Shown in pieces: positions 45,469-46,027 of a stretch of 49,459 nucleotides of DNA. The notes under the pieces are model-generated. The model had not been told where the DNA came from and made no database searches. It worked only from the letters and a program-made list of their open reading frames with translations. The DNA is from an uncultured Bacteroidales bacterium (GTDB lineage: Bacteria > Bacteroidota > Bacteroidia > Bacteroidales > Muribaculaceae): the NCBI GenBank assembly GCA_949285735.1, contig CASEAQ010000016.1:1-49459 (forward strand), given 5' to 3'. Positions within the stretch are counted from its first letter, which is position 1. Every line of letters begins with the position of its first letter. The translations under genes were made by a program, and so were the position numbers.

Positions 45469-45654
45469 CTTGCAAACTTTTTAGGGTGCAAACTTAGCAA
45501 TAAATTACATTCGTTCGAATAAAATTATGAATTTATTCTTTGCGCAGACACTCCGATTTGTTAATACGACCATATAAATTGGGCATATTGGTTAAATAAT
45601 GTTGCTTAGGCAAATTTTATTGCCCGAAAATTATGTTGTATAACACATTCTGCT
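45469..45654. other. Divergent intergenic region between mgtC-like gene and orphan RNA
   Basis: It holds the -7-like element of the mgtC-like gene (complement of 45489-45496) and AT-rich sequence with an inverted pair GGGCA (about 45579) and TGCCC (45621). No reading frame is supported. Confidence 0.4.
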
Positions 45655-45662
45655 TACCTTTG
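45632..45662 (+). promoter_or_regulatory. Promoter of the orphan structured RNA
   Basis: TATG (45632-45635), 19 bases, then TACCTTTG (45655-45662). The -7 box is identical to those of both tRNA genes in this window, suggesting strong transcription starting near 45669. Confidence 0.6.
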
Positions 45663-45668
45663 CGCCAG

Positions 45669-45807
45669 TTATTCATGGTATTAGTTTTAAGGCAAACTAA
45701 AGATGAGTGTCGTGAGACAATCACTTCTGTTTTTAGGTTTATGTTAATGGTATTAGAAGGTTATTTAAAGCGATCCTGGGCAGTGATGCCGAGGATTTAT
45801 TTTTTTA
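45669..45807 (+). ncRNA. Orphan RNA with two tandem ATGGTATTAG/GTGA-hairpin modules
   Basis: Two modules follow each other. Each has the ten-base box ATGGTATTAG (45675-45684 and 45747-45756) and, 22-23 bases later, a hairpin whose four apical pairs are capped by a GTGA tetraloop: TGTC/GACA at 45708-45719 and GGCA/TGCC at 45779-45790. Below each apical stem is a single mismatch and then further pairs (three pairs in module 1; six pairs, AGGATT with GATCCT, in module 2). The second hairpin runs into a U-rich tract (45797-45807) and so can serve as terminator. A 77-codon frame across it breaks this logic and has no family match. The next plus-strand gene, nagB, is about 570 bases away beyond an oppositely oriented tRNA, so this looks like an independent small RNA rather than a leader. 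Confidence 0.6.
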
Positions 45808-45858
45808 TATCCCCACCACACCCACACATTAATTCCAACAATGGTGGCAGTAGAAAAT

Positions 45859-45888
45859 ATTCCTAATTCCTCATTCAAAATTCCTAAT
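45859..45888. repeat. ATTCCTAATT repeat cluster beyond tRNA-Leu terminator
   Basis: ATTCCTAATTCCTCATTC followed by AAAATTCCTAATTA, in the same orientation as the other dispersed copies, directly beyond the U-tract of the tRNA-Leu terminator. Confidence 0.8.
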
Positions 45889-45925: not shown

Positions 45926-45944
45926 ACCTCTAATGTTTAACCCG

Positions 45945-46027
45945 TGCCCGAGATCGGAGTCGAACCGATACGGATGTTACTCCACTGGTACCTGAAACCA
46001 GCGCGTCTGCCATTTCGCCACCCGGGC
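45945..46027 (-). tRNA. tRNA-Leu (CAG)
   Basis: The minus strand folds into an 83-base cloverleaf with acceptor GCCCGGG/CTCGGGC. The anticodon stem-loop CTGGT-TTCAGGT-ACCAG gives anticodon CAG. It has a long class II variable arm (GTGGAGTAACATCC) and a T-loop TTCGACT. Discriminator A, no encoded CCA. A single-gene unit with its own promoter and terminator. Confidence 0.95.

What the first reader, a model, noticed from the sequence alone, without database searches (positions are those of the whole stretch)
45632..45807. Orphan RNA built of two tandem box-plus-GTGA-hairpin modules
Seen directly: the ten-base box ATGGTATTAG occurs twice 72 bases apart, and each copy is followed after 22-23 bases by a hairpin with a four-pair tip, a GTGA (GNRA-type) tetraloop and a single mismatch below the tip. 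The stem sequences differ (TGTC/GACA versus GGCA/TGCC) while the architecture is kept, which is what a selected RNA fold would look like. A promoter with the same -7 box as the tRNA genes stands upstream and a U-tract ends the second hairpin. No gene follows on that strand. A tandem, tRNA-level-expressed small RNA or a paired binding site for an RNA-binding protein would fit. I have a vague memory of similar boxes in other Bacteroidales genomes, which I cannot verify.
Basis: partly seen in the sequence, partly recalled or inferred. Interest (0 to 1): 0.75.

Follow-up and report, generated by a model that had tools for sequence, protein, structure and literature searches.

The report
Twin-box FopS-type regulatory small RNA
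A Muribaculaceae-type bacterium carries a doubled form of a known Bacteroides regulatory RNA, apparently switched on by the sugar-starvation regulator and apparently aimed at sugar-foraging genes, in a family that mostly lacks the RNA's known protein partner.

Summary
In detail: two ATGGTATTAG boxes 72 bp apart, each followed by a GTGA hairpin. It is not an orphan. Both modules match Rfam FopS (RF04319) below its cut-off (42.9 and 27.3 bits against 56): a doubled, diverged FopS-type sRNA.

100 further copies lie in 96 of 119 stretches returned by a capped pattern scan. Both hairpins covary; the 77-codon frame is not conserved. Linker plus box 2 occurs in 41 of 247 genomes of the family, 5 of 30 genera.

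Three things go beyond the published family. (1) FopS matches 119 of 119 family genomes, but the partner domain RRM_1 (RbpB) only 2 of 119. (2) The promoter carries the Cur/BT4338 palindrome: 1 mismatch of 14 here; 56 of 101 copies have at most 2, 0.2 expected. (3) In this genus the linker before box 2, not the boxes, is complementary to leaders rich in glycan-use genes; this signal is uneven between samples.

Verdict: new variant of a known kind. Likely circuit: Cur, twin-box FopS, glycan-use mRNAs. Expression and regulation are untested.

The parts
45632..45647 (+). Cur/BT4338-type palindrome TATGTTGTATAACACA, centred 15 bp upstream of the -7 box
   Evidence: 1 mismatch of 14 to TATGTTnTAnAACATA; consensus from PMC3878776 and PMC6989115
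45655..45662 (+). -7 promoter box TACCTTTG (TANNTTTG)
   Evidence: sequence; TANNTTTG 18-21 nt upstream of box 1 in 99 of 100 homologues
45666..45806 (+). twin-box FopS-type sRNA; 5' end inferred from the Rfam model and the promoter (about 45666-45669), 3' end at the U tract
   Evidence: RF04319 hits 45666-45734 (42.9 bits) and 45737-45809 (27.3 bits), cut-off 56
45675..45684 (+). box 1 (FopS/GibS R1-type box), followed by TTTTAAGG
45700..45726 (+). hairpin 1, AAG.TGA.TGTC-GTGA-GACA.TCA.CTT; CTGTTTTT follows, not called as a terminator by the simple scan
45726..45749 (+). linker and candidate seed TCTGTTTTTAGGTTTATGTTAATG; core AGGTTTATGTTA 45735-45746
   Evidence: segment whose complement is enriched in 5' UTRs; core near-invariant in homologues
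45747..45756 (+). box 2, followed by AAGGTTA
45772..45806 (+). terminator: GATCCT-G-GGCA-GTGA-TGCC-G-AGGATT and U tract (by eye and fold; the simple terminator scan did not list it)

Best explanation
This is a FopS-lineage sRNA made of two FopS units in one transcript of about 140 nt. In module 1 the terminator has become an internal hairpin; module 2 keeps the terminator. Transcription is probably driven by a Cur (BT4338)-type Crp regulator at the promoter palindrome, so the RNA should rise when sugars run out. The stretch before box 2 (linker) then probably pairs with the translation-initiation region of SusC, SusD and glycoside-hydrolase mRNAs and blocks ribosome loading, as FopS-10 does for one susC in B. 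theta, here without an RRM protein. Shown here: homology, covariation, promoter motif, distribution, complementarity. Inferred: expression, Cur control, direct pairing, sign of regulation.
For: FopS matches on both modules. 100 homologues with the same layout in 96 of 119 stretches. Covariation score 0.204 vs 0.100 shuffled (hairpin 1 tip) and 0.324 vs 0.174 (terminator), 0 of 500 each. Cur palindrome in 56 of 101 promoters at <=2 mismatches vs 0.2 expected; the 59 sites with <=3 are centred 15-17 bp from the -7 box. In 840,753 bases of this genome 4 sites have <=1 mismatch and 2 precede the two twin RNAs, the second one at another spacing. Linker complement of >=9 nt: 20 of 285 own leaders in the SusC-centred sample, 0 of 300 shuffled linkers as high; same-genus G431 12 of 272, 4 of 300. 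Genes with it are secreted in the own genome (18/20 vs 105/265; second sample 5/5 vs 77/264). SusC, SusD, glycoside hydrolase or sialidase make up 15 of 25 own, 4 of 12 G431 and 3 of 8 G469 positives, and 0 of 5 in non-carrier G479, 0 of 1 in G559. SusC leaders with >=8 nt: 5/14 own, 4/10 G431, 5/10 G559 with its own linker, 0/10 G479. Precedents: FopS represses susC (PMC11697453); Cur activates the sRNA MasB (PMC10994844).
Against: No transcript data. The linker signal is uneven: second own sample 5 leaders, 82 of 300 shuffles as high, reversed and sense linkers 4 each, and the poly-U segment of the terminator scores higher (9); G469 8 leaders, 20 of 300. 457 UTRs beside homologues and the general G559 sample show no linker excess. 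The first own sample was picked around SusC loci; cut-offs of 8 and 9 nt were set after seeing data; gene starts are first ATGs of long ORFs. In G431 and G469 the link to secretion is not significant (6/12, 4/8). Two of the five G559 SusC matches are AAACAAAA. The boxes, the published seeds, show no enrichment. Box 1 and box 2 are predicted to pair with each other in 73 of 94 copies. 35 of 101 promoters have >4 mismatches to the palindrome. No Cur orthologue was located; a crude motif scan of held stretches found no candidate.
Confidence: 0.6

Rival explanations
1. The UTR motif is not a target site. TAACATAAACCTAAAAA is a general leader feature of secreted-protein genes in this genus (translation enhancer or other), and its complementarity to the linker is coincidence. 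The RNA then acts through its boxes on other targets.
For: Enrichment is strong only in the SusC-centred sample; G559 carries the same core linker but its general UTR sample shows none.
Against: The linker is the highest-scoring segment of the RNA in the first own sample, G431 and G469, though not in the second own sample; in the first own sample reversed linker 0 and sense copy 1 against 20; SusC leaders match in carriers and not in G479.
Confidence: 0.24
2. A self-masking RNA: the two boxes are GU-palindromes (UGGUAUUA) that pair with each other and close the molecule; box-box pairing, opened by target or protein, is the regulatory step.
For: Helix probability mean 0.60 against 0.05 in shuffled context; TTC before box 1 and GAA after box 2 are invariant in the 62 rows of A1.
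Against: The box pairs are invariant, so there is no covariation; the helix is lost in 9 of 10 copies with a diverged box 1.
Confidence: 0.2
3. A protein-binding sponge: two boxes give two binding sites for an RNA-binding protein that RbpB homologues serve elsewhere.
For: FopS and GibS bind RbpB in B. theta, GibS with two CLIP peaks (PMC11697453).
Against: RRM_1 in 0 of 1 own and 2 of 119 family genomes, 0 of 91 at least 90% complete.
Confidence: 0.15
4. A short peptide from the 77-codon frame.
For: Open frame 45633-45866, open over much of its length in the nearest relatives.
Against: In most of 100 homologues the box-1 frame stops within 26 codons, and box spacing mod 3 is mixed, 47/32/21; stems covary.
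Confidence: 0.02

Closest known systems
FopS, family of paralogous sRNAs, Rfam RF04319 (Bacteroides thetaiotaomicron; PMC11697453)
   Same: UUCAUGGUAUUAG box, AAGG after it, GUGA-type terminator hairpin, TANNTTTG promoter box, several copies per genome, proposed action on glycan-use mRNAs.
   Different: Two units in one transcript, first hairpin without a directly following U tract, near-invariant new linker, scores below the cut-off, Cur-type palindrome, no RRM_1 match in the genome.
GibS, Rfam RF04182 (PMC7366714)
   Same: About 140 nt, R1-type box at the 5' end, internal hairpin, single-stranded stretch, terminator.
   Different: 25.5 bits against cut-off 115; GibS has R1 plus a different R2, a PM2 promoter and another locus (between pab and glycogen genes).
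MasB sRNA of B. theta (PMC10994844)
   Same: An sRNA activated by Cur.
   Different: Sequence relation not tested; different published target (BT_1675).
Multi-seed sRNAs such as LhrC or GcvB (seeds recalled)
   Same: Several pairing segments in one sRNA.
   Different: Other phyla; sequence relation not tested.

Membership tests
FopS (RF04319) | Covariance-model score at or above the gathering cut-off of 56 bits | tested here: not met
   42.9 and 27.3 bits; none of 10 homologous loci reached it. Two single FopS copies in the same genome do: 77.7 and 57.4 bits
FopS (RF04319) | R1-type box near the 5' end | tested here: met
   box 1 and UUC context
[quoted passage not shown]
   two hairpins; only the second is directly followed by a U tract
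FopS (RF04319) | multicopy family | tested here: met
   7 model hits in this genome, counting both modules of this RNA
FopS (RF04319) | association with RbpB | tested here: inconclusive
   binding not testable; no RRM_1 match in a genome 79.8% complete, 2 of 119 family genomes
FopS (RF04319) | represses susC-type mRNAs by pairing at the start region | tested here: inconclusive
   in-silico complementarity only, through the linker
GibS (RF04182) | model score at or above cut-off 115 | tested here: not met
   25.5 bits
GibS (RF04182) | PM2 promoter and induction by GlcNAc | not testable with these tools
   PM2 letters are not given in the passages seen
Bacteroidales-1 (RF01693) | model match | tested here: not met
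   no match
Cur/BT4338 regulon | palindrome wwwTATGTTnTAnAACATAwww in the promoter | tested here: met
   1 mismatch of the 14 inner positions; the outer www were not scored
Cur/BT4338 regulon | cur-dependent expression and Cur binding | not testable with these tools
   needs a strain and ChIP or Northern blot
Cur/BT4338 regulon | a Cur orthologue in the genome | not tested

The most novel reading that the evidence does not exclude
A Cur-driven, RbpB-independent riboregulator of glycan foraging. Duplication of a FopS unit turned the boxes into structural or masking elements and created a new seed between them. One near-invariant 12-nt linker then addresses many PUL leaders (SusC, SusD, glycoside hydrolases, a hybrid regulator), giving this Muribaculaceae genus a second, RNA-level arm of carbon-catabolite control.
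Probability: 0.3. Interest if true: 0.82.

Novelty: new variant of a known kind. Interest (0 to 1): 0.64.

Why it matters
In the papers I saw, RNA-level control of polysaccharide use is worked out only for B. theta, where it involves RbpB and FopS. Here FopS-type RNAs match every one of 119 genomes of a family in which RRM_1 is nearly absent, so the RNA must work alone or with another protein. The twin-box form ties the master carbohydrate regulator, an sRNA and PUL leaders into one testable circuit.

Tried and rejected
Bacteroidales-1, tRNA or another Rfam family for the locus: no hit at the cut-offs; permissive search gives FopS and GibS first, then chance-level families. Peptide from the 77-codon frame: not conserved. 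GibS orthologue: score far below cut-off. Phage origin: the 23 viral stretches with the box pair are, by eye, simple repeats or unrelated; one phage record and two records of the plasmid collection match only 38-44% of the query, not read further. Box 1-box 2 helix as the conserved fold: predicted, but lost in 9 of 10 diverged copies. MAFFT columns for hairpin 1 were misaligned, so pairs were counted outward from the loops and on subsets with few or no gaps. Limits of those counts: the hairpin-1 pattern itself demands a GNRA-type loop and constrains tip pairs 1-3, so only pair 4 is free; terminator loops were taken from predicted folds; the tip subset holds 4-base loops only; the terminator subset holds 23 of the 24 rows (L051 left out). 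RNAduplex of whole segments against SusC leaders was weak (p 0.08 for linker plus box 2, 0.83 for box 1). Consensus RNA against 457 UTRs of relatives: no linker peak. No covariance model of the twin form was built. Of the 8 non-own hits in the order-wide pattern search six were read and none is this RNA; L135 and L141 were not read.

Rows dropped: 23 chance stretches of 119; 6 of 101 twin copies without a recognised tip (2) or T run (4); one over-long row; SusC leaders: own 14 of 37 matches, and the 10 loci given of 15 (G431), 14 (G559) and 27 (G479) matches.

This lowered the share of glycan genes in G431 and, with the poly-U result, my confidence from 0.62 to 0.60 and raised the first rival from 0.22 to 0.24.

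Papers: PMC11697453 abstract, sections 7, 8, 13, 14, 28 and passages; PMC7366714, PMC10994844, PMC3878776, PMC6989115, PMC12119571, PMC13370916 passages only; others seen only in search listings. That a twin or tandem FopS is not in print rests and on no occurrence of 'tandem' or 'dual' in PMC11697453; supplements were not read.

Full report
Observation. Both boxes, both GTGA hairpins, the mismatches, the promoter box and the U tract are as described. The reading 'no gene follows on that strand' is too strong: a nagB-like gene (recalled name) starts about 0.5 kb on, beyond a tRNA-Leu on the other strand.

Identity. No Rfam family but tRNA reaches its cut-off in the window, but with permissive settings both modules match FopS end to end (42.9 and 27.3 bits). 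Module 1 reads box, AAGG, hairpin; module 2 reads box, AAGG, terminator hairpin. This is a doubled FopS unit. The same genome has single FopS copies (77.7 and 57.4 bits, over the cut-off; two weaker) and a second twin RNA at C15 with diverged boxes.

Homologues. The boxes are invariant by construction of the scan, and I kept pairs within two mismatches of TTTATGTTA before box 2. 99 of 100 have TANNTTTG 18-21 nt upstream of box 1. Submitters call most hosts Muribaculaceae, Prevotellaceae, Porphyromonadaceae or Bacteroidales. The window shares gene order with L062, L083, L102 and L132. L062 is titled Muribaculaceae; L132 is Ca. Avimuribaculum pullicola, which NCBI lists as Bacteroidales incertae sedis. 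I call the family (code f1) Muribaculaceae from these titles, and because contig lengths of G469 and G431 equal those of records titled Muribaculaceae. In L132 the sRNA stretch is 87% identical to the window, the coding neighbour 73%. In whole genomes of the family, linker plus box 2 (one mismatch allowed) is found in 41 of 247: 9 of 9 of the own genus, 5 of 30 genera, mostly one to three copies; the reversed control hits 1 of 247.

Fold. Counted outward from the loop in 82 distinct copies, tip pair 4, the one my search pattern leaves free, is CG, TA or AU in 72. On subsets of 23 rows each, the covariation score and the share of paired cells beat all 500 shuffles for both hairpins; the number of pair types and of pairs changed on both sides does not. 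The outer arms of hairpin 1 pair better with their own partner than with swapped partners, in 63 distinct arm pairs and in 17 dissimilar representatives (0 of 5000 each). The protein frame is not kept.

Partner protein. FopS matches 119 of 119 family genomes, 113 over the cut-off. RRM_1 matches 2 of 119, 0 of 91 that are at least 90% complete; the control Bacteroides ihuae is positive. Across 237 genomes of the order, strong FopS matches (E below 1e-6) occur in 43 genomes of 20 family codes, 18 of them without RRM_1. FopS is thus wider than the Bacteroidaceae reported in PMC11697453 and not tied to RbpB.

Promoter. Upstream lies the palindrome TATGTTGTATAACACA. The consensus TATGTTnTAnAACATA was proposed for the Crp-family regulator BT4338/Cur (PMC3878776) and tested at fusA2 (PMC6989115). 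56 of 101 twin promoters have at most two mismatches of 14 (0.2 expected), and the 59 with at most three are centred 15-17 bp from the -7 box; 35 of 101 have more than four. In 840,753 bases of this genome four sites have at most one mismatch; two precede the two twin RNAs, the C15 site standing further from its -7 box. A looser form, TGTTnnnnAACA, is exact in 8 of 29 single FopS promoters. The FopS paper's main text does not mention Cur or Crp. Cur activates the sRNA MasB.

Targets. I asked which 8-mers of the RNA have complements in 5' UTRs. In 285 leaders of this genome one segment stood out, the linker (positions 59-78): CATAAACC in 7 leaders against 0.36 expected; 7 of its 18 copies in 442,753 bases lie in leaders against 0.29. 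That sample was chosen around SusC loci. Segment sums, observed/expected: first own sample 77/14.4, second own sample 22/12.3, same-genus G431 29/11.3, non-carrier G479 15/9.1, carrier of another genus G559 3/9.5. Leaders with 9 or more nt, with shuffled linkers of 300 as high: 20 (0), 5 (82), 12 (4), 5 (42), 1 (281), and G469 8 (20). In the second own sample and in G479 the poly-U segment scores higher than the linker. Neither box 1 nor any single FopS of the genome shows such a peak. Signal peptides by a simple rule: own positives 18 of 20 and 5 of 5, against 105 of 265 and 77 of 264; G431 6 of 12 and G469 4 of 8, not significant. Strict glycan genes (SusC, SusD, glycoside hydrolase, sialidase): own 15 of 25, G431 4 of 12 (one of them a glycogen debranching enzyme), G469 3 of 8, G479 0 of 5, G559 0 of 1. 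Others include a hybrid two-component regulator, a ROK protein, fucose isomerase and an MFS transporter, but also an ABC transporter, a carbamoyltransferase and shikimate dehydrogenase. The GH36 gene carries the site in both G431 and G469. In 110 random negatives of the second own sample no glycoside hydrolase family matched two or more; single matches beyond the first 25 of 159 families are not shown. SusC leaders with 8 or more nt: own 5/14 (shuffled mean 1.22), G431 4/10 (0.97), G559 with its own linker 5/10 (1.63), G479 0/10 (0.38). In the own genome the matches begin 12-37 nt before the start codon; FopS-10 and GibS act near start codons in B. theta.

Mechanism. I favour: Cur-type activation on sugar limitation, a single twin RNA, linker (with box 2) pairing over the start region of glycan-use mRNAs, repression of translation. 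Folding predicts that the two boxes pair with each other in 73 of 94 copies and that the linker is about half open; 9 of 10 copies with a diverged box 1 lose that helix, so it is optional at most.

Novelty. FopS is known; a twin form, its linker seed, its Cur palindrome and its RRM-free setting were not found in the papers searched.

Noticed in passing
window 45944-46027 (-): tRNA-Leu (CAG) on the opposite strand between the sRNA and a nagB-like gene; GlcNAc metabolism beside a GibS/FopS relative may be coincidence.
   Followed up: no
L030 7033-7218 (+) and 7302-7438 (-): In one close relative the twin RNA lies next to a Bacteroidales-1 (6S-like) RNA.
   Followed up: no
L117, L125: Two and three twin RNAs in a row about 344 bp apart, a local array of duplicates.
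   Followed up: no
L147, L154, L156, L157, L159, L160, L162, L171: Twin copies whose box 1 has diverged or been lost while box 2 is kept (box 2 was the search key), as if the 5' seed were free to change.
   Followed up: partly
L003 about 1480-1620 (G000:C15): Second twin RNA of the window's genome, boxes ATGGTAAAAG and AAGGTATTAG, same linker, and a Cur-like palindrome with 1 mismatch further upstream.
   Followed up: partly
L204, L205: The only two RRM_1 genes among 119 family genomes, both in genomes below 90% completeness; contamination or late transfer is possible.
   Followed up: no
L045: Array of ATGGTATTAG units about 74 bp apart in an uncultured bacterium, perhaps a CRISPR-like repeat; unrelated to this RNA.
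   Followed up: no
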